The notes below the pieces were generated by a model. The model searched no databases. It was not told the origin of the DNA and saw only the letters and a program-made list of their open reading frames with translations. Shown in pieces: positions 9,657 through 31,197 of a DNA stretch of 36,669 nucleotides; position 1 is the stretch's first letter; each line of letters opens with the position of its first letter. Source of the stretch: Hyphomicrobiales bacterium (GTDB lineage: Bacteria > Pseudomonadota > Alphaproteobacteria > Rhizobiales > Rhizobiaceae); assembly GCA_002400845.2 (NCBI GenBank), contig NVRK02000067.1, positions 1 to 36,669 on the forward strand, read 5' to 3'. The translations under genes and the position numbers were made by a program.

Positions 9657-10508
9657 ATGCCTGCAACATCCAAGCGTAGTGATTATGAAAAGCGCATATT
9701 ACGTGTTCTTCAATATATCTACGAAAACCCAACGGGCGATTTGTCGTTAGATAATTTGGCAGATATTGCCGCAATGTCTAGGTTTCATTGGCATAGGGTA
9801 TTTCTTGGGCTAACAGGCGAGACATGTGCGCAAGCAGTTCGCAGAATTAGATTGCACCTTTCTGCAAGCATGTTGTGCCATAGCGATTTGCCAGTTGGCG
9901 AAATTGCAAAGAATATTGGCTACCCAAGTTCACGAAGTTTTATTCGTGTGTTTAGCGAGCGTTATGGTTTCTCTCCTGGTGTGTTTCGTAAAATGGGCCG
10001 TGTTGGTCCTTTAAAGAGCAAGTTAATTGCAGGAGAAACAAATATGTTTAAGATTGAAATTGTTGACGCGCCAAAACGCAGACTGGCAGCAATTTTTCAC
10101 AAGGGGTCCTATATTGGTATTGCGAAACATTTTGAGACCTTAGCCACAATTGCAGGCTCAAGAGGGCTTTGGCCGCAAGTGAAAAATGTTCTGGGTGTGT
10201 ATTGCGATGATCCAAATGCTGTGGCAGAGGCAGATTTGCGTAGTTATGCTGGGCTTGAAGTAGACGATAACTTTGAAATAATGGAAGAAACACAGGAGCT
10301 TGTTTTAAAAGGCGGTGCTTATGCCGTGCTACATTTTAAAGGCCCTTATACGTCTATGCAGCCAGCCTACAATTATTTGTTTGGTGAGTGGTTAGCTAAT
10401 AGTGTTCGTGAATTGAGAGATGAACCTGCATATGAAGTCTATTTAAACAGCCCAAGTGATACAAAACCGGATGATTTGATAACAAAGATCTACATGCCGC
10501 TTGTTTAA
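9657..10508 (+). CDS. AraC-family regulator with GyrI-like effector domain
   Basis: 283 residues. The N-terminal ~110 residues hold two AraC-type helix-turn-helix motifs: LSLDNLADIAAMSRFHWHRV, then VGEIAKNIGYPSSRSFIRVF with the typical ending RYGFSPGVFRK. Residues from about 125 form a GyrI-like (SbmC/Rob C-terminal type) small-molecule-binding domain, seen in EIVDAPKRRLAAIFHKGSY and YAVLHFKGPYTSM and ending in IYMPLV. This order (HTH first, GyrI second) is that of Rob, and such proteins usually respond to amphipathic or toxic compounds. The gene is divergent from the aldo-keto reductase and probably controls it or itself; that link is inferred. GAGAGTG precedes the ATG. It ends 5 bp from the convergent ScfR-type gene. 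Confidence 0.9.
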   Translation: MPATSKRSDYEKRILRVLQYIYENPTGDLSLDNLADIAAMSRFHWHRVFLGLTGETCAQAVRRIRLHLSASMLCHSDLPVGEIAKNIGYPSSRSFIRVFSERYGFSPGVFRKMGRVGPLKSKLIAGETNMFKIEIVDAPKRRLAAIFHKGSYIGIAKHFETLATIAGSRGLWPQVKNVLGVYCDDPNAVAEADLRSYAGLEVDDNFEIMEETQELVLKGGAYAVLHFKGPYTSMQPAYNYLFGEWLANSVRELRDEPAYEVYLNSPSDTKPDDLITKIYMPLV

Positions 10509-10513
10509 CGTTT

Positions 10514-11929
10514 TTAATTTTTAAAATTGAAATTGGATATGCTTGAGCCTGCCTCGTCTAATGCTAATGTTCTGGCAAGCGGCGCGGCAGCGCGCATTAA
10601 ACAAGCTTCACGTTCGCAAAGGCGGCAATTAGAACCAATTTCGTTCGGTGAGTTTTTCAAAGCAGGGGCGTAAATTGTTACATCAGCTTCGCTTGCATCA
10701 ATGCCAACTAGAATAGCAGTTTTTCGAGGTTTTATGCCATAAGCGCCGGCTGGCCCGTCGAGTGTTTTGGTTATGGTTATAAATTGATTATCATTAGTTT
10801 GAATATTATTTTCCACAAGCAAGTAATTTGGTTGAGAGAACGCTGAGAATACATCAAGTTTTGGGCAGGCACCGCCAAATTTTGATCGTGGATAGCCAGA
10901 GCGGCCTGATCTCCTTACTAAATTACCAGCTTGATCGACCTCCATCATAAAGAAGTCAGGTCCTTTTGCTTTTTTGCGGCCCAATGTTGTTAGGCGATTG
11001 GCGGCTTGTTCGAATGACACATCAAATCTACCTGCAAGAACGTCAATATCGTATTTCATGCGTTTGGCAGATTGTAAAAATTTTGTGTAAGGCATCATAA
11101 TGGCATGCGCGGCATATCGGGCAAATTCTAAACGGGCTAGCCGTTTTGCTTCGTCTGCTTTTAGGTCGAGGTGTTGTACTTCTTCGTCAATTCTTTCAGT
11201 AAGGCCTAATAAAACAACTTCGGTCGCTAGTTCTTGTAATTGGTCATGGGGTGAAAGGCGTTCGGATATAAAGATACGCATTGAATGTTTGTCAAAGCGC
11301 CTTCTCCAATCTGGCATGGTTTCAATTGGCAACGTTTGAACTGAAATTCTGTGTTTCTCAAAAAGCCAATTGGTGAGCGATGTAAACAAATTAGCATTGC
11401 GGTCAAACTTGGAAGCAAATTCTTCTGCCGCATGATCTAGATATTCAAAATGGTTAGGTTTGGTTTCTAAGATTTGACGCAAAGCATCCGCTGGTACACC
11501 GGTTTCATCAAGATTTGTGCCTTGTCCTTTTTCAACCAGCAGTGTGTTCAGCTCAGACAGCCTAGAAAGGGCCTCTCTATAACCGCGATGGAGTTTTAAT
11601 ATGCCATTTGCAACATTTGGGGATAGGTCTGCCATCTCGAACAATTCATCAAAGCTGGAAAGTTCGCCTTGTAATAATGGATCAGAAAAGACTTCTTTTA
11701 GGTCACTAACAACCCCGTCTGTATCCCCTTGCAATTGATCGGGGCTAATGTCGTAAACAGAAGAAAGTTTAACAAGTATTTGAACCGTTATGGGCCGTTG
11801 ATTGCGTTCAATCAAATTTAGATAGCTTGGTGATATTTCTAATTCTTGCGCCATTACTGTTTGCGTGAGGTTTAAAGACAGGCGTATGCGCTTTACTTTA
11901 GGGCCAGCAAATATCTTTTGATCGGACAT
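10514..11929 (-). CDS. ScfR/RamB-type XRE transcriptional regulator of short-chain fatty acid / acetate metabolism
   Basis: 471 residues. An N-terminal XRE helix-turn-helix (KRIRLSLNLTQTVMAQELEI, then SPSYLNLIERNQRPITVQIL) is followed by a middle region resembling IrrE/ImmA proteins. The C-terminal segment ends with the cysteine motif CRLCEREACLMRAAAP. This is the short-chain fatty acyl regulator architecture. RamB controls the glyoxylate cycle in corynebacteria, and relatives next to aceA act on isocitrate lyase in alphaproteobacteria. Here it is divergent from aceA with repeated TTTACAAA boxes between, which strongly suggests the same job. The ATG at 11929 has AAGGA 6 bases upstream; the overlapping TTG at 11932 is less likely. 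Confidence 0.9.
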   Translation of the reverse strand: MSDQKIFAGPKVKRIRLSLNLTQTVMAQELEISPSYLNLIERNQRPITVQILVKLSSVYDISPDQLQGDTDGVVSDLKEVFSDPLLQGELSSFDELFEMADLSPNVANGILKLHRGYREALSRLSELNTLLVEKGQGTNLDETGVPADALRQILETKPNHFEYLDHAAEEFASKFDRNANLFTSLTNWLFEKHRISVQTLPIETMPDWRRRFDKHSMRIFISERLSPHDQLQELATEVVLLGLTERIDEEVQHLDLKADEAKRLARLEFARYAAHAIMMPYTKFLQSAKRMKYDIDVLAGRFDVSFEQAANRLTTLGRKKAKGPDFFMMEVDQAGNLVRRSGRSGYPRSKFGGACPKLDVFSAFSQPNYLLVENNIQTNDNQFITITKTLDGPAGAYGIKPRKTAILVGIDASEADVTIYAPALKNSPNEIGSNCRLCEREACLMRAAAPLARTLALDEAGSSISNFNFKN

Positions 11930-11962
11930 CAATTTTCCTTCAATAATCTAATGAACTTTATT

Positions 11963-25931: not shown

Positions 25932-26029
25932 TATTTTCTCCGAACAGAATAAAAGCATAAAGTGTGATTTTGCTTTTTGAAGTAGAAAATAGTGACCGAA
26001 ACAATTTTATAGCTTATTTCATATTCTAT

Positions 26030-26353
26030 TTATTTGAGGTCAGCGTGTTTTTCGCCCCAATCTCTAAGAGCAATGAGTGCAGGTCTTAAGTCATGACCCT
26101 TTTGCGTTAAAATGTATTGCGCACGCGGAGGATGGTCTGAATAAAACTGTCGTTCAACAATTTTGTGCTTTTCTAACTTTTTTAAACGTTCAGATAGGGT
26201 GCTAGCACTTAGCGAGGGCAGACTGTTTAATAAGTCTTGGTAGCGCTTTGGGCTTTCAAGTAATAATTCTCGAAGTATTAAAGGCGTCCATTTTTCGCCG
26301 ATAATATCTAAAGCACAGGCCAGCGGACAAGTTTGATTGTAAGATTTTGTCAT
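26030..26353 (-). CDS. HxlR-family winged-helix transcriptional regulator
   Basis: 107 residues from the ATG at 26353; no clear ribosome site is seen, and a TTG at 26368 is also possible. The family pattern is clear: CPLACALDIIGEKWTPLILR at the N-terminus with the conserved Cys9, then the wing helix SLPSLSASTLSERLKKLEKH and YSDHPPRAQYILTQKGHDL. HxlR proteins often sense aldehydes, quinones or oxidants through that cysteine. It is divergent from the MAPEG gene, with a perfect inverted repeat in between, so it probably regulates that gene and itself. Confidence 0.92.
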   Translation of the reverse strand: MTKSYNQTCPLACALDIIGEKWTPLILRELLLESPKRYQDLLNSLPSLSASTLSERLKKLEKHKIVERQFYSDHPPRAQYILTQKGHDLRPALIALRDWGEKHADLK

Positions 26354-26404
26354 TGTATTTTTTAACAAGATAAGTGCAGAAAATAAATAGACTTTTAAAA
26401 TAAA

Positions 26405-26429
26405 AGTAACTAGTAATTATGGAGTTACT
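26405..26429. promoter_or_regulatory. Inverted repeat between HxlR and MAPEG genes
   Basis: AGTAACT (26405-26411) and AGTTACT (26423-26429) are perfect inverted repeats with an 11-bp spacer, located 52-76 bp upstream of the HxlR start. This is a typical layout for a winged-helix dimer operator, and HxlR itself is the natural candidate. Confidence 0.5.
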
Positions 26430-26548
26430 ATGTAATGAATAATATATTGGACTAAATTGTATGATTCTGGGCAAGCAATTTTACGATTGTGTAGCTTGAA
26501 TAAAGTGATGTGAGCCTATTTTAAGACCAAAAATTCATGGAGAGTAAA

Positions 26549-26944
26549 ATGACATTACCAATTACAACCCTTTTAGCTGCTGTACTTGGTCTATGGCTTA
26601 TAATGTTGAGCATGCGTGTTGTAAGTATTCGCCGAAAGCAAAAGATATCAATTGGACATGGAAATAATGATGAACTACATCGTAGGCAAAGAGGGCATGC
26701 AAATTTAATTGAATATGCACCGCTGACAATTGTATTGTTTGCATTAGCTGAAATTCAAAACCAAAATATATACTTTTTAATTGTACTGGCAGCTATGTTT
26801 TTTATAGCTCGTATTGTCCATGGCTGTGTATTTTCATTTTTCAAACCAAATTTAAAACTTCGTACTTATAGTATGCTCGCTACTTTTCTATGTATCGCTG
26901 CACTTTCAATCAGTAATATAATTTTGGTAGTGATGAGCTTTTAA
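26549..26944 (+). CDS. MAPEG-family membrane protein
   Basis: 131 residues with four membrane helices, matching the MAPEG family (membrane-associated proteins in eicosanoid and glutathione metabolism; bacterial members include YecN). The start is MTLPITTLLAAVLGLWLIML, and the family signature is in DELHRRQRGHANLIEYAPLT with the conserved RxxRGHxNxxEYxP pattern. The third and fourth helices follow (FFIARIVHGCVFSFFKPNLK, then MLATFLCIAALSISNIILVV). GGAGAG lies four bases before this ATG (26549), which is preferred to the ATG at 26537. Divergent HxlR gene suggests induction by an electrophile or oxidant. Substrate unknown. Confidence 0.9.
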   Translation: MTLPITTLLAAVLGLWLIMLSMRVVSIRRKQKISIGHGNNDELHRRQRGHANLIEYAPLTIVLFALAEIQNQNIYFLIVLAAMFFIARIVHGCVFSFFKPNLKLRTYSMLATFLCIAALSISNIILVVMSF

Positions 26945-27027
26945 TCGCCTTAATTGTTACAGCCTTAAATTTGTCGTTGTTTAACGCGTGAAATGATATA
27001 TTTTATGCTAATGATAATTGTTTAAAG

Positions 27028-27480
27028 GTGAGCAAAGTGCGCAATACAGTAGAGCTTTCAAATAAGTTGATTGAAAATGGGCACGAAATGCAAGTGCGTG
27101 TCTATTATGAAGATACTGACTTTTCAGGCGTTGTGTATCATTCTAATTATTTGAAATATATGGAGCGTTCTCGCACAGAATGGCTAAGACACCTAGAGGT
27201 GTTTCATACTGATTTAGAAAAAGAGAAATCCGCTTTTGCTGTTCATAAAATGAATTTGCATTTTGGTCCTCCAGCCGTGATTGATGATCTCTTGACCATT
27301 CGTACCATTCGTAAAAAAATGGGTGGTGCTAGAACCTTTTTGCGCCAAGAAGTCTTGCGTAAAGAAGAAGATGGTTCTGAAACATTATTACTAGGCGCTG
27401 ATATAGATGTTGCCTTTATTCATCATGGTGGTGGGGCGAAACGTTTCCCTGATGAGTTGCGTAAAAAGCTAGGTGGTTGA
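27028..27480 (+). CDS. ybgC: Tol-Pal-associated acyl-CoA thioesterase YbgC
   Basis: Hotdog-fold thioesterase that opens tol-pal clusters; the E. coli enzyme hydrolyses short acyl-CoAs and associates with phospholipid enzymes. The active-site segment VRVYYEDTDFSGVVYHSNYL (residues 23-42) has the catalytic Asp and the conserved Tyr/His. The rest, MERSRTEWLRHL and KRFPDELRKKLGG*, is complete at 150 residues. The start is a GTG at 27028; a second GTG at 27037 has AAAGG upstream and is possible. Unlike the usual arrangement, tolQ does not follow directly: the last 82 bases before the final codons (27395-27476) are duplicated at 28503-28584, on the other side of an unknown gene. The reading frame of ybgC itself is intact. 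Confidence 0.95.
   Translation: MSKVRNTVELSNKLIENGHEMQVRVYYEDTDFSGVVYHSNYLKYMERSRTEWLRHLEVFHTDLEKEKSAFAVHKMNLHFGPPAVIDDLLTIRTIRKKMGGARTFLRQEVLRKEEDGSETLLLGADIDVAFIHHGGGAKRFPDELRKKLGG
27395..27476 (+). repeat. Left copy of the 82-bp direct repeat (in ybgC 3' end)
   Basis: Bases 27395-27476 are identical to 28503-28584 (offset 1108). The copies then diverge: here GGT TGA ends ybgC, in the right copy GGC TAG would end it. Both thus encode the same final residues Gly-Gly-stop with different codons. Confidence 0.97.
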
Positions 27481-27501
27481 TTTTAAAGCTTAAGGTTGTG
27501 A

Positions 27502-27543
27502 ATTAGAATTCATTAAGTAATAGTGTTTTTTAGGAATTCTAAT
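27502..27543. repeat. 10-bp inverted repeat at the start of the inserted segment
   Basis: ATTAGAATTC (27502-27511) and GAATTCTAAT (27534-27543) are perfect inverted repeats 22 bp apart, with a T-run in the spacer. They lie between the ybgC stop and the inserted gene and could be a hairpin, an operator or part of an attachment region. Confidence 0.6.
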
Positions 27544-27557
27544 ATCAAGAGGTTGTA

Positions 27558-28514
27558 ATGGGCTGGCGCGGAACTTTAAGAACAATAAATTCGGTTGCTA
27601 GGGCAGCTGAGAAAGAAGTTCAAAGACAACATAAGCAAAACCTAAAACTACAAATTTCAGAAGATGCCGCTGATGCTGTTCTTGTGTGGGAGCAACATAT
27701 AAAAAATCTGATGACAATCCACACTAACCTTGATGACAGTATAAATTGGCAAGAGGTTTTGATATCTGATCCCCCTCAAAAAAATCAACCTTCAGTTCTG
27801 CACCGTAATCCGATTATTCCTAAGGTTAAGTCATTTGAACCTAGTATTCTTGATTTTCTTTCTGGGGGGACTGAAAAAAGAAAAGCAAAGTTAATTTCGG
27901 CCTATAAAGCAGCAAAAGAAAAAGATGCAGAAGAAGATATAAAATCTAACAATAAATTTGAGCTTGAATTTTCAGAGTGGAAAAATGATGTTGATATGGC
28001 ATCTAGATTGATTGCTGGTGACATAAGTGCATTTCGTGAAGTGATTGATGAAATGATGGATGTATTCGCTAAAGACTTGATCGGAAGTAAGATAAACTTT
28101 TCATTTGATGAAAATTTAATTCACGCTGAAGCGGATGTGCATTCTGATGAAATTATTCCAAGCTTTAGGAGAAAGCAGCTTGCAAGTGGTAAGTTATCTG
28201 AAACTAAAATGCCTATTGGTCAATTTAATGAGATATATCAAGATTACGTTGCAAGTGTCTCAATAAAAATTGCAGGTGACTTGTTCCATATTACTCCGCT
28301 AGATGAAGTGTATGTTACTTGCAAATCGAGAATGCTGAATACACAAACAGGCCACCAAGAGTCTAAGCCAATTTTATCTGTTAAATTTGTTAGAGATACA
28401 TTTAGGGGATTAGATTTAGAATATATAGATCCCTCAGATTCATTAAATAACTTTATTCACAATATGGATTTTAAGAAGGCCAAAGGATTCTTACCAGTTG
28501 ATGCGCTGATATAG
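27558..28514 (+). CDS. Unknown 318-residue protein carried by the inserted segment
   Basis: I cannot name a family. The N-terminus (MGWRGTLRTINSVARAAEKE, then VQRQHKQNLKLQ) is basic and helical, probably coiled-coil. The middle (residues 110-160) is also charged and helical (KLISAYKAAKEKDAEEDIKS). The C-terminal half is a mixed alpha/beta region with patterns such as IYQDYVASVSIKIAGDLF, LNTQTGHQESKPILSVKF and FIHNMDFKKAKGFLPVDAL. I recall unnamed proteins with the same two C-terminal patterns and end, so the gene is probably full length. It has no signal peptide or membrane helix. Its stop codon (28512-28514) lies inside the duplicated ybgC sequence, in another frame. AGAGG precedes the ATG. 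Context suggests an accessory cargo gene; function unknown. Confidence 0.8.
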   Translation: MGWRGTLRTINSVARAAEKEVQRQHKQNLKLQISEDAADAVLVWEQHIKNLMTIHTNLDDSINWQEVLISDPPQKNQPSVLHRNPIIPKVKSFEPSILDFLSGGTEKRKAKLISAYKAAKEKDAEEDIKSNNKFELEFSEWKNDVDMASRLIAGDISAFREVIDEMMDVFAKDLIGSKINFSFDENLIHAEADVHSDEIIPSFRRKQLASGKLSETKMPIGQFNEIYQDYVASVSIKIAGDLFHITPLDEVYVTCKSRMLNTQTGHQESKPILSVKFVRDTFRGLDLEYIDPSDSLNNFIHNMDFKKAKGFLPVDALI

Positions 28515-28584
28515 ATGTTGCCTTTATTCATCATGGTGGTGGGGCGAAACGTTTCCCTGATGAGTTGCGTAAAAAGCTAGGTGG
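28503..28584 (+). repeat. Right copy of the 82-bp direct repeat (detached ybgC 3' end)
   Basis: A non-translated copy of the ybgC 3' end, followed by GGC TAG, which would finish a YbgC protein identically (...KKLGG). It supplies the last codons and stop of the inserted gene in another frame. It probably marks the original junction between ybgC and the tolQ leader. Confidence 0.95.
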
Positions 28585-28632
28585 CTAGTGGTTTGATCTA
28601 ACCAGGCTAAAAATAGCCTAATTATAAGTATT

Positions 28633-28654
28633 AAGCGTTAGAATCCTAACGCTT
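28633..28654 (+). terminator. Perfect hairpin after the inserted segment
   Basis: AAGCGTTAG (28633-28641) and CTAACGCTT (28646-28654) form a 9-bp stem with a 4-nt loop. No U-run follows (CGTTTACC), so it may be a weak terminator, an mRNA-stabilising hairpin or a relic of the original ybgC-tolQ spacer. Confidence 0.5.
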
Positions 28655-28842
28655 CGTTTACCATAATTCTTTATTAAATTAATCAATTGGTTTGGCTTTT
28701 GGCTGAGCTTTAGGCCTTTTTTGGGTTTGATGTTCAATCACGCCATTGTTTGACCAAGTTTTTCAGGTTTTCGTAGCCTAGCCATTGTTGCGCGAATTAG
28801 CGTTGTGCAAATAAGCAACATGAGCGGGGCTTTTCTTATAAG

Positions 28843-28862
28843 TGGTTTCTGCTTGGAAACCA
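28843..28862 (+). promoter_or_regulatory. Hairpin immediately before the tolQ ribosome site
   Basis: TGGTTTC (28843-28849) pairs with GAAACCA (28856-28862) over a 6-nt loop, and the AAAGGA ribosome site (28863-28868) follows directly. It could set the mRNA 5' end or modulate tolQ translation. Confidence 0.4.
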
Positions 28863-28874
28863 AAAGGACTTTAA

Positions 28875-29627
28875 ATGGACGTGACGACTATATTTGCGAT
28901 TTCTTCGGCATTTGCCCAAGGCGTTGAAACAGGTACGCTTGAAGCTGCTGGAGATCATTCTTTAATTGGTTTGTTTATACAAGCTGGCTTTATCGTAAAA
29001 TTTGTTATGATTGGTCTGTTGATTGCTTCTGTCTGGAGCTGGGGTGTGATGGTGGATAAATACATTTTATTCGCAAAGACAACACGCCAGTTTAACCGTT
29101 TTGAAGATGTCTTTTGGTCGGGTCGTTCGTTAGAAGAATTGTATCAGTCTTTGGCTGATAAAAATCCAACTGGTATGGGTGCGCTGTTTATGGCGGCCAT
29201 GAAAGAATGGAAAAAAAGCTTTGAACGCGGAGCGCATTCGCAAATTGGCTTGCAAACAAGAATAGACAAAGTTTTAGATGTTTCGCTTGCAAGAGAAAGT
29301 GATAGTCTTGAAAAGCGCTTGGGCTTTTTAGCAACGGTTGGTTCTGCCGCACCTTTTGTTGGTTTGTTTGGTACGGTTGTGGGTATCATGACATCGTTTC
29401 AGGCGATTGCGGGTTCTAAGTCGACAAACCTTGCTGTTGTTGCACCTGGTATTGCCGAAGCATTGCTTGCGACAGCACTTGGCCTAATGGCTGCTATTCC
29501 AGCGGTTATAGCTTATAATAAATTCTCGTCAGATGCAGGCAAATTAACATCTCGCTTAGAAGGTTTTGCAGATGAATTTTCAGCCATACTTTCGCGTCAA
29601 ATTGATGAAAAAACATCTAAACGTTAA
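28875..29627 (+). CDS. tolQ: Tol-Pal system proton-channel protein TolQ
   Basis: 250-residue inner-membrane protein of the MotA/TolQ/ExbB family; with TolR it turns the proton gradient into force on TolA for outer-membrane constriction at division. Three membrane segments are visible: LFIQAGFIVKFVMIGLLIAS near residue 40, then the pair LGFLATVGSAAPFVGLFGTV and AEALLATALGLMAAIPAVIA near residues 155-215 with the conserved small-residue faces. The extended N-terminus before helix 1 is typical of rhizobial TolQ. It starts the contiguous tolQRAB run, although the inserted segment now separates it from ybgC. AAAGGA lies 6 bases upstream of the ATG. Confidence 0.97.
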   Translation: MDVTTIFAISSAFAQGVETGTLEAAGDHSLIGLFIQAGFIVKFVMIGLLIASVWSWGVMVDKYILFAKTTRQFNRFEDVFWSGRSLEELYQSLADKNPTGMGALFMAAMKEWKKSFERGAHSQIGLQTRIDKVLDVSLARESDSLEKRLGFLATVGSAAPFVGLFGTVVGIMTSFQAIAGSKSTNLAVVAPGIAEALLATALGLMAAIPAVIAYNKFSSDAGKLTSRLEGFADEFSAILSRQIDEKTSKR

Positions 29628-29686
29628 AACCAATATTAGCTGTACGATTTTAAAATACTCTTAGGTGGTATTTAAGGAAAACTATA

Positions 29687-30127
29687 ATGGGCATGTCTAC
29701 AGGAAGATCTGGTGGTAGTCGCAGAAGGCGCGGCAAACGTAACCAAATTATGAGCGAAATTAACGTTACACCCTTTGTGGATGTGATGTTGGTGCTGTTA
29801 ATTGTTTTTATGGTTGCTGCACCACTTTTAACCGTTGGGGTGCCTATTGATTTGCCCGAAACACAGGCAAAGGCACTTAGCTCGCAAACACAGCCAATAA
29901 GTTTGTCTGTAAATAATAAAGGGCAAATTTTTCTACAAGAAACTGAAATTCCAATGAATGAGATTGTAGCGAAATTAAGCGCGATTGCCAAAAATGGGTA
30001 TGAAGAGCGTATCTATGTGCGCGGTGATAAAACAGCGGATTATGGCGCTGTAATGCAAGTGATGGGGTTGATTTCGCAAGCGGGTTATAAGCGCCTGGCG
30101 ATGGTTACTCTACAAGAACAAAAATAG
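29687..30127 (+). CDS. tolR: Tol-Pal system protein TolR
   Basis: 146 residues with a basic cytoplasmic N-terminus (GGSRRRRGKRNQIMSEINVT), a single transmembrane helix (FVDVMLVLLIVFMVAAPLLT) containing the ion-path Asp at residue 32, and a periplasmic ExbD/TolR domain (LSVNNKGQIFLQETEIPMNE). TolR forms the stator with TolQ. A ribosome site AAGGAAAA precedes the ATG. It is 59 bp after tolQ, and tolA follows after 14 bp. Confidence 0.96.
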   Translation: MGMSTGRSGGSRRRRGKRNQIMSEINVTPFVDVMLVLLIVFMVAAPLLTVGVPIDLPETQAKALSSQTQPISLSVNNKGQIFLQETEIPMNEIVAKLSAIAKNGYEERIYVRGDKTADYGAVMQVMGLISQAGYKRLAMVTLQEQK

Positions 30128-30141
30128 GTCTGCTGGTTTAA

Positions 30142-31197
30142 ATGAAAATTGGTGTTGTACTTTCTAGCGTTGCACATGCGGCACTCCTTTCTTGGGGATT
30201 GCTTAGCATAAAAGCGCCTGCGCCATTGGAAGTTGCCGAAGTAGAATCCATTAGTGTAGAAATCATTTCTTTTAGTGATATATCAGAAGCTGTGCAGGGT
30301 GAAAAAGAAGCAGACTTGCGTGATACGCCTGCACCTATTCCGACAAAAAGACCAGATGCTAATTTAGAGGCAAAAAATGTTGGCGATACAAAAGTTGATG
30401 TAAAAACGGAACGTGAAGAAAAGCTCGTTGAAAAAATCGTCGAAGTGAAAAAGGCCGCACCGCCAGCGCCCACCCCAACACCGCGCCCAGAAGTTGCGCC
30501 AGATCCTCAAACAACAAAAGAAGAAGCGCCAGCACCAACGACAGAAGTTGCCGCTTTAACACAGCCTGCTGTCCCAATTTCTGCTCAGCCAATAGCAGAA
30601 GAAACACCGATTGTTGAAAAAGGCGAGCAATTTGCAAAATTGCCTATAAGTGTTGCGGCTCCTGCAAAACGTCCTTCGCCCCCCAAACCAAAAAGCGCAG
30701 AAACGACTGATCGTAAAAAATCAAAAGAGCCTGCAAAAAAGAAAACGGCTACGTCTGATAGTAAAAATAAATCTAAGGCAGATGCTTTAGCCGCTTTAAT
30801 TAATAAGCAAAAACCTACAGCAGCAGGTTCTAAAAGCACAAAAAAACAAGCATCGCTTGGCACTAAAAAACCCTCTAAAGGCAAGAAATTAAGTCGCAAC
30901 GAGATGGATGGTTTGCGATCTGCAATTGAAGGGTGTTGGTCTGTGCCAGCTGGCCTTGCCGAAGCAGAAAATTTGCGTGCCACAGTTATCATGAATTTGA
31001 AAAAAGATGGTACAGTTAATGGTAAACCGATTGTAACAGTAAGTGGTGGCAGTAAAAGACAACAACGAACGTTTGCAGGGAGCGTAAAGCGCGCTGTTCT
31101 AAATCCTCGTTGTCAGCCTTATTCTCTACCAAAAGATAAGTATGATACGTGGTCAGAAGTTGAAGTAAACTTTAGCGCTGCTGATATGTTTGATTAA
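30142..31197 (+). CDS. tolA: Cell envelope integrity protein TolA
   Basis: 351 residues. An N-terminal hydrophobic helix (VVLSSVAHAALLSWGLLSIK) anchors it in the inner membrane. A long Pro/Ala/Lys/Glu-rich middle region (about residues 60-260, for example KKAAPPAPTPTPRPEVAPD) spans the periplasm. The C-terminal globular domain is the energised end contacting Pal (IEGCWSVPAGLAEAENLRAT, then AVLNPRCQPYSLPKDKYDTW) with two cysteines. The low-complexity middle is shorter than in E. coli, as in other rhizobia. It links the TolQR motor with TolB/Pal. Only a weak ribosome site is seen, so translation may be coupled to tolR. Confidence 0.95.
   Translation: MKIGVVLSSVAHAALLSWGLLSIKAPAPLEVAEVESISVEIISFSDISEAVQGEKEADLRDTPAPIPTKRPDANLEAKNVGDTKVDVKTEREEKLVEKIVEVKKAAPPAPTPTPRPEVAPDPQTTKEEAPAPTTEVAALTQPAVPISAQPIAEETPIVEKGEQFAKLPISVAAPAKRPSPPKPKSAETTDRKKSKEPAKKKTATSDSKNKSKADALAALINKQKPTAAGSKSTKKQASLGTKKPSKGKKLSRNEMDGLRSAIEGCWSVPAGLAEAENLRATVIMNLKKDGTVNGKPIVTVSGGSKRQQRTFAGSVKRAVLNPRCQPYSLPKDKYDTWSEVEVNFSAADMFD

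What the first reader, a model, noticed from the sequence alone, without database searches (positions are those of the whole stretch)
27395..28588. A 1.1-kb insertion splits ybgC from tolQ and duplicates the 3' end of ybgC exactly
The last 82 bases before the final codons of ybgC (27395-27476) recur without any change at 28503-28584. Just after the repeat the copies differ (GGT TGA against GGC TAG), yet both keep the same protein end Gly-Gly-stop. The element thus restored the end of an essential-neighbourhood gene while placing a new gene in between. This is the geometry of integration at a gene's 3' end, but the insert has no integrase and only one gene. It could be a minimal satellite element mobilised in trans, or a product of homologous exchange with a related strain carrying the extra gene.
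Basis: partly seen in the sequence, partly recalled or inferred. Interest (0 to 1): 0.75.

Follow-up and report, generated by a model that had tools for sequence, protein, structure and literature searches.

The report
One-gene integrase-less island at ybgC
A 1.1-kb piece of DNA carrying one gene of unknown function sits between two bacterial genes, ybgC and tolQ, and is flanked by two identical 82-base copies of the end of ybgC; it is likely a tiny genomic island that entered at ybgC by site-specific integration, and it carries no recognised integration enzyme.

Summary
An exact 82-bp direct repeat (27395-27476, 28503-28584) brackets one gene, X (27558-28514, 318 aa), between ybgC and tolQ. 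The right copy is the native ybgC end, because a tolQ-upstream motif shared with relatives follows it. X is absent at this site in all 18 of the 23 closest loci that hold both genes.

X belongs to a sporadic, unnamed family. Two other X loci, in more distant genomes, have the same layout: intact target gene, X facing the same way, then a displaced copy of the target's 3' end, with no integrase recognised. They are at tRNA-Thr (1.3 kb) and tRNA-Pro (8.9 kb). Three further chromosomal X loci lack such a repeat. Papers name ybgC as an integrase attachment site in Bradyrhizobium, same order.

My best reading is a site-specifically integrated mini-island without an integrase (CIME-like), perhaps with a defence gene as cargo; confidence 0.55. 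Short-homology recombination, exchange with a strain carrying X, or misassembly remain possible. No circle or empty conspecific site was seen. Whether the Bradyrhizobium att core lies in the 82 bp was not tested.

The parts
27028..27480 (+). ybgC (thioesterase), complete; its 3' end from 27395 on is the left repeat copy and its last base and stop are insert-borne
   Evidence: ORF; Pfam 4HBT 1.2e-9
27395..27476 (+). left 82-bp copy, attL-like, completes the ybgC reading frame
   Evidence: exact direct repeat
27477..28502 (+). insert between the two copies, 1,026 bp, GC 34.3% (window 40.6%)
   Evidence: a match in 1 of 21 genomes searched, its own
27558..28514 (+). gene X, 318 aa, unnamed accessory family; last codons and stop lie in the right repeat
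   Evidence: ORF; 681 homologues; no Pfam, NCBIfam or PADLOC family at E <= 1; PHROG 38135 of unknown function 5.2e-37
28503..28584 (+). right 82-bp copy, attR-like: displaced native ybgC 3' end
   Evidence: exact direct repeat; followed by the conserved tolQ-upstream motif
28640..28667 (+). motif conserved upstream of tolQ in relatives; marks the native ybgC-tolQ spacer
   Evidence: beats all 200 shuffles in 16 of 18 relatives
28875..29627 (+). tolQ
   Evidence: Pfam MotA_ExbB 1.9e-35

Best explanation
The 1.1-kb segment is a one-gene insert flanked by an exact 82-bp duplication of the 3' end of ybgC, likely left by site-specific integration of a small genomic island that carries no recognised integrase. 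Shown: the exact repeat; the left copy completes ybgC with the same Gly-Gly-stop; the right copy is the displaced native end; X is the only gene recognised between them; two other X loci have the same layout at tRNA genes. Inferred: a tyrosine integrase acting in trans, or one since lost from the island, joined an element att site carrying a ybgC 3' end to the chromosomal one. This regenerated ybgC on the left and left a displaced fragment on the right. The element is thus CIME-like: att sites kept, recombination genes missing. Recombination between the 82-bp copies, by an integrase or by RecA, is predicted to remove X and restore the empty site. X is probably cargo, possibly a phage-defence gene (untested).
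For: Exact 82-bp repeat at a gene's 3' end that restores the protein end. The right copy is native. X is absent at this site in the 18 of 23 closest loci that hold both genes. [quoted passage not shown] the order is the same. The same layout recurs with other X genes. G200: tRNA-Thr, 42 bp exact and 49 bp at 96%, copies 1,337 bp apart, X the only gene recognised between them. G1086: tRNA-Pro, 21 bp exact and 61 bp at 88.5%, 8.9 kb, holding a large gene that matches candidate-defence family PDC-S37 and Hhe, plus X. In all three X faces the same way as the target gene and is the recognised gene nearest the displaced copy (in G1086 a 105-aa ORF of no Pfam family, on the other strand, lies between). 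No integrase stood out in the ORF lists of G200 and G1086, and tblastn with the four tyrosine recombinases of the own genome found none there. In S. meliloti the 37 prophages and 51 islands in tRNA genes carry 12-98-bp repeats (PMC11476347, passage). The own genome holds two further tyrosine-recombinase matches besides XerC/XerD-like ones, one of them below the Pfam cut-off.
Against: No integrase lies in the insert. No clear second copy of the ybgC 3' end was seen in 130 other family genomes, 124 of them with a YbgC hit, or in 60 relatives, 57 with a hit, so ybgC is not a busy site in this family; a diverged 28-residue fragment could have been missed, and G048 has YbgC in two contig pieces that could not be told apart. 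Three of six chromosomal X loci (G004, G663, G945) show no such repeat in the stretches fetched. The 82 bp are 100% identical, so the att would have to come from the same or a very close strain. The passages on Bradyrhizobium do not say where in ybgC the site lies, and its core was not compared with the 82 bp. The G200 X is frameshifted and a short SIR2-like stretch (my reading) precedes it, so G200 may be a decayed island.
Confidence: 0.55

Rival explanations
1. Illegitimate, short-homology insertion: an incoming DNA fragment with X was joined to the chromosome at two points staggered by 82 bp, duplicating the stretch between them. No site-specific recombinase took part.
For: The X end can overlap the start of the right repeat: the Leu codon CTG inside the repeat sits where 96 of 113 homologues have Leu, as expected if native X and ybgC share a few bases there. 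In G663 X entered right after a stop codon with no repeat, as compared with relative G841. dprA and a GTA-type gene are present, so uptake of host DNA is plausible. The process is proposed for other loci (PMC5361080, passages), and in E. coli and two other species 10-18% of small variable segments are flanked by direct repeats, most of them below 30 bp (PMC2884548, passages).
Against: An immediate in-frame stop after the last Gly on the left side would be luck (3 of 64 codons are stops). It does not explain the same layout at the tRNA genes of G200 and G1086. An 82-bp repeat is longer than most in PMC2884548.
Confidence: 0.25
2. Homologous exchange with a conspecific strain in which X already lay downstream of ybgC, with unequal crossing-over leaving a second ybgC end.
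For: The 82 bp are identical, as expected within a species. A same-species-like X (P0009, first 169 of 184 residues identical to X) exists in another JGI assembly.
Against: Equal exchange would leave no duplication, and this only moves the question to how the donor got X. No donor arrangement was found in the 23 closest loci.
Confidence: 0.12
3. Assembly artefact: the metagenome assembler joined an X-bearing molecule to ybgC-tolQ through the 82-bp word.
For: The genome is a draft in 130 contigs and the repeat is short enough to confuse short-read graphs.
Against: X would still have to be flanked by the ybgC end in the reads. X keeps a full-length frame across the right junction, with a plausible C-terminus (318 aa, the same length as P0001).
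Confidence: 0.08

Closest known systems
CIME (cis-mobilizable element), as defined in PMC5704250 (passage)
   Same: att-like repeats kept at a gene's 3' end; no integration or transfer genes recognised
   Different: only 1.1 kb and one gene; descent from an ICE or IME and mobilisation are not shown
Bradyrhizobium symbiosis ICE small B element at ybgC (attBY)
   Same: integration at ybgC in the same order of bacteria
   Different: that element has its own integrase and is about 0.05 Mb in one account; another paper describes a 4,160-bp island bounded by an integrase and ybgC; att cores not compared
Islander-type genomic islands in tRNA genes (PMC4383910, passages)
   Same: regenerated target gene plus displaced fragment mark the island ends
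   Different: Islander requires an integrase gene and a tRNA or tmRNA target; neither holds here
Homology-facilitated illegitimate recombination displacing old genes or 3' parts (Vibrio T6SS, PMC5361080, passages)
   Same: new gene inserted, old part displaced downstream
   Different: no flanking direct repeat is described in the passages read; here the displaced end is an exact 82-bp copy

Membership tests
CIME / integrase-less integrated element | direct repeats (attL/attR) at the target gene's 3' end with the gene regenerated | tested here: met
   82-bp exact repeat; ybgC complete on the left, displaced end on the right
CIME / integrase-less integrated element | no integration or transfer genes inside | tested here: met
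   one ORF of 60 aa or more is listed in the insert, X; no Pfam, NCBIfam or PADLOC family for X
CIME / integrase-less integrated element | excision or mobilisation by an integrase that recognises the att sites | not testable with these tools
   no reads and no experiment; two candidate recombinase matches on other contigs
CIME / integrase-less integrated element | descent from a decayed ICE or IME | tested here: inconclusive
   no ICE gene in the insert; G200 shows a decayed look with a frameshifted X
Bradyrhizobium attBY-type integration | crossover within the same ybgC att core | not tested
   core sequence and its place in ybgC not in the passages read
Insertion sequence / transposon | terminal inverted repeats | tested here: not met
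   longest exact inverted match between the outer 60 bases: 8 bp for the insert alone, 10 bp (a palindrome inside the repeat) with both copies; no inverted repeat of 20 bp or more in 26000-30500
Insertion sequence / transposon | a transposase gene | tested here: inconclusive
   X matches no family at E <= 1 in Pfam or NCBIfam, but its function is unknown
Phage satellite | phage-related genes or presence in phage collections | tested here: inconclusive
   no X relative in the phage or viral collections at the sensitivity used; a PHROG profile of unknown function matches X

The most novel reading that the evidence does not exclude
Gene X is itself the integration factor of a one-gene integrative element that targets 3' ends of tRNA and protein genes: a new class of element of about 1.1 kb with an unknown kind of recombinase. 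X is the only gene recognised in two of the three flanked elements (one copy frameshifted), and in all three it is the recognised gene nearest the displaced att copy and points towards it.
Probability: 0.07. Interest if true: 0.85.

Novelty: new member of a known kind. Interest (0 to 1): 0.45.

Why it matters
It is a very small, recent and apparently reversible island at a protein-gene att-like site next to the tol operon. Its gene family recurs in islands without a recognised integrase at other att-like sites, in places beside candidate phage-defence genes. If mobilisation in trans is real, single genes can travel on the integrases of other elements, and the ybgC 3' end is an integration site outside Bradyrhizobium as well.

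Tried and rejected
A first reading, that no other X locus carries flanking repeats, rested, which left out L070 and the plasmid loci. with 12 loci overturned it.

The 41-bp repeat around X on the Nostoc plasmid (L078) was rejected as an att site. It is part of an older tandem duplication (299 nt at 82%, then 120 nt at 78%) with X inserted in the first copy only.

Rows dropped: the weak or partial family hits G1062, G879 and G865 were left out; G1108 (L105, 20.7% identity) was in the 12 loci but not in the six chromosomal loci. In the C-terminus count 7 of 120 listed proteins without the GF motif near the end were dropped. L071 (same site as L070) was not counted apart; L104, L106 and L107 were not used in the final counts. 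Nine more plasmid records (23-31% identity) were seen as a listing only.

Full report
WHAT IS THERE. The 82-bp repeat is exact and at the stated coordinates, 1,108 bp apart, and these are the only two matches in the own genome. Between the copies lies 1,026 bp with one recognised gene, X (27558-28514, 318 aa). The left copy runs into GGT TGA and completes ybgC. The right copy runs into GGC TAG. The stop codon of X lies inside the right copy.

WHICH COPY IS NATIVE. In relatives, a 28-bp motif lies upstream of tolQ. In the window it is 52 bp past the end of the right copy (28640-28667). It beats all 200 shuffles in 16 of 18 relatives with both genes on the locus; the exceptions are L010 (46 of 200 shuffles as good) and L013 (3 of 200). 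So the right copy is the original ybgC end and the left copy continues into inserted DNA. In 21 relatives the 82 bp are 65-80% identical to the window, so an exact pair is recent or homogenised.

RELATIVES. The nearest named relatives are metagenome-assembled Hyphomicrobiales labelled Nitratireductor, Salaquimonas, Rhizobiaceae and the like. Of the 23 closest loci (L003-L025), 18 hold both genes. In 15 the gap is 199-416 bp, in three it is 641, 2,573 and 3,795 bp; X lies in none of these, nor in the fetched part of the other 5. G004 and G006 have gaps of about 4.9 and 4.2 kb, without X. The five larger or open gaps that were read hold ordinary genes by eye, with Pfam names for genes from three of them. 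None of 22 loci tested has a second ybgC end in the gap; short chance-like hits in four lie elsewhere. In the three such loci measured (L003, L005, L011) the added genes lie between ybgC and the motif, so the spot tolerates insertions.

GENE X. X has no Pfam, NCBIfam or PADLOC family at E <= 1; its C-terminal part matches PHROG 38135 of unknown function. The homologue search found 681 proteins, of which 120 were listed; the closest full-length one is 87% identical (P0001), a 184-residue one shares its first 169 residues (P0009), and most of the others listed lie near 50%. X is sporadic: 2 of 101 relatives, 3 of 394 family genomes, 2 of 385 class genomes, and 7 of 398 phylum genomes with an alignment, four of these weak or partial; each count includes the own genome. 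Neighbours of X elsewhere include a large helicase-nuclease gene matching PDC-S37 and Hhe in G1086 and G945, and a gene with DUF4041 and T5orf172/MUG113 domains on a Fibrella plasmid. A defence role is a guess from company kept. The AlphaFold2 model has no clear match in the PDB.

THE SAME LAYOUT ELSEWHERE. Twelve X loci, the window included, were tested for exact direct repeats within 1.5 kb. Besides the window, two have one over 20 bp. G200 has a 42-bp copy (49 bp at 96%) of the 3' end of tRNA-Thr, 1,337 bp away, with only X, frameshifted, recognised in between; X faces the same way as the tRNA. A stretch before X there reads like the start of a SIR2-type protein (recalled, not searched). 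The Nostoc plasmid repeat is an older tandem duplication and not an att site. Reading further out, G1086 has a displaced tRNA-Pro 3' end (21 bp exact, 61 bp at 88.5%) 8.9 kb away, bounding the Hhe-like gene and X; a 105-aa ORF of no Pfam family lies between X and the displaced copy. No integrase stood out in these ORF lists, and tblastn with the own genome's four recombinases gave none. So three of six chromosomal X loci are flanked in this way; the window is one by choice, so two of five are independent. G004 (beside tRNA-Arg), G663 (right after a stop codon) and G945 are not, in the stretches fetched. In a control of 965 random intervals, one had a repeat of 20 bp or more within 1.5 kb.

ybgC AS AN ATT SITE. 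Passages of PMC9174649 and PMC9239051 say that the small element of the bipartite Bradyrhizobium tRNA-Val symbiosis ICE integrates near ybgC, at a site in ybgC called attBY, and that each element has an integrase gene bordering an att site. PMC11218460 describes a 4,160-bp island bounded by an integrase and ybgC (passage). Bradyrhizobium and Nitratireductor are both in Hyphomicrobiales. The place of the att core in ybgC was not given in the passages read and was not compared with the 82 bp. In the family of the window no other genome among 130 (124 with a YbgC hit) showed a clear second ybgC end, nor did 60 relatives (57 with a hit). The other second hits there are of 27-38% identity and look like paralogues or, in G048, one gene cut over two contigs; a diverged 28-residue fragment could have been missed.

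MECHANISM. I read the window as an integrated mini-island without its own integrase, close to the CIME definition in PMC5704250 (passage). Shown: the repeat, the regenerated gene, the displaced native end, the single gene. Inferred: the integrase, acting in trans or lost. The own genome has XerC- and XerD-like recombinases and two further tyrosine-recombinase matches (L110 above the Pfam cut-off, L111 below it), none of them tested. Main rivals are short-homology illegitimate insertion, exchange with a strain carrying X, and misassembly; their cases are set out in the rival section.

VERDICT. It is a small new example of a known kind of structure, with an interesting cargo family. Interest 0.45. 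The bold reading, that X is its own integration factor, is not excluded but has little direct support.

Noticed in passing
27476-27481 and 28497-28502: The hexamer GTTGAT occurs at both ends of the insert, directly at the repeat borders; possibly chance, possibly a trace of how the insert was joined.
   Followed up: no
27438-27447 and 28546-28555: Each 82-bp copy holds a perfect 10-bp palindrome, GAAACGTTTC, a possible crossover core for a tyrosine recombinase (speculative; the stretch also codes for YbgC residues).
   Followed up: no
P0009: A JGI protein agrees with X for its first 169 residues and then ends in an unrelated tail: another assembly in which X is interrupted or joined to other DNA.
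   Followed up: partly
26537-26944 and L012:4527-4889: A MAPEG-family gene lies just upstream of ybgC in the window but a MAPEG gene lies just downstream of ybgC in L012, so accessory genes may move around ybgC in this group.
   Followed up: partly
L113:9588-17425 and L114:2754-10561: X lies directly beside a 2,211-2,212-aa gene matching PADLOC PDC-S37 and Hhe in two genomes, in opposite order.
   Followed up: partly
L075:4327-7011: On a Fibrella plasmid the X homologue starts 43 bp after a gene with DUF4041 and T5orf172/MUG113 domains.
   Followed up: partly
L078:5300-7737: On a Nostoc plasmid X sits inside the first copy of a diverged tandem duplication and is missing from the second, a natural empty-site comparison.
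   Followed up: partly
L074:9903-10181 and 10171-11958: Beside X in G004 a short stretch of a solute-binding-protein gene appears to be repeated in inverted orientation.
   Followed up: no
window 6391/6556 and 4461/4481: Other exact direct repeats in the window (at least 30 bp and 20 bp), unrelated to X.
   Followed up: no
G000:C22:4442-5344: A gene-transfer-agent TIM-barrel gene (PF13547) is present in the own genome.
   Followed up: no
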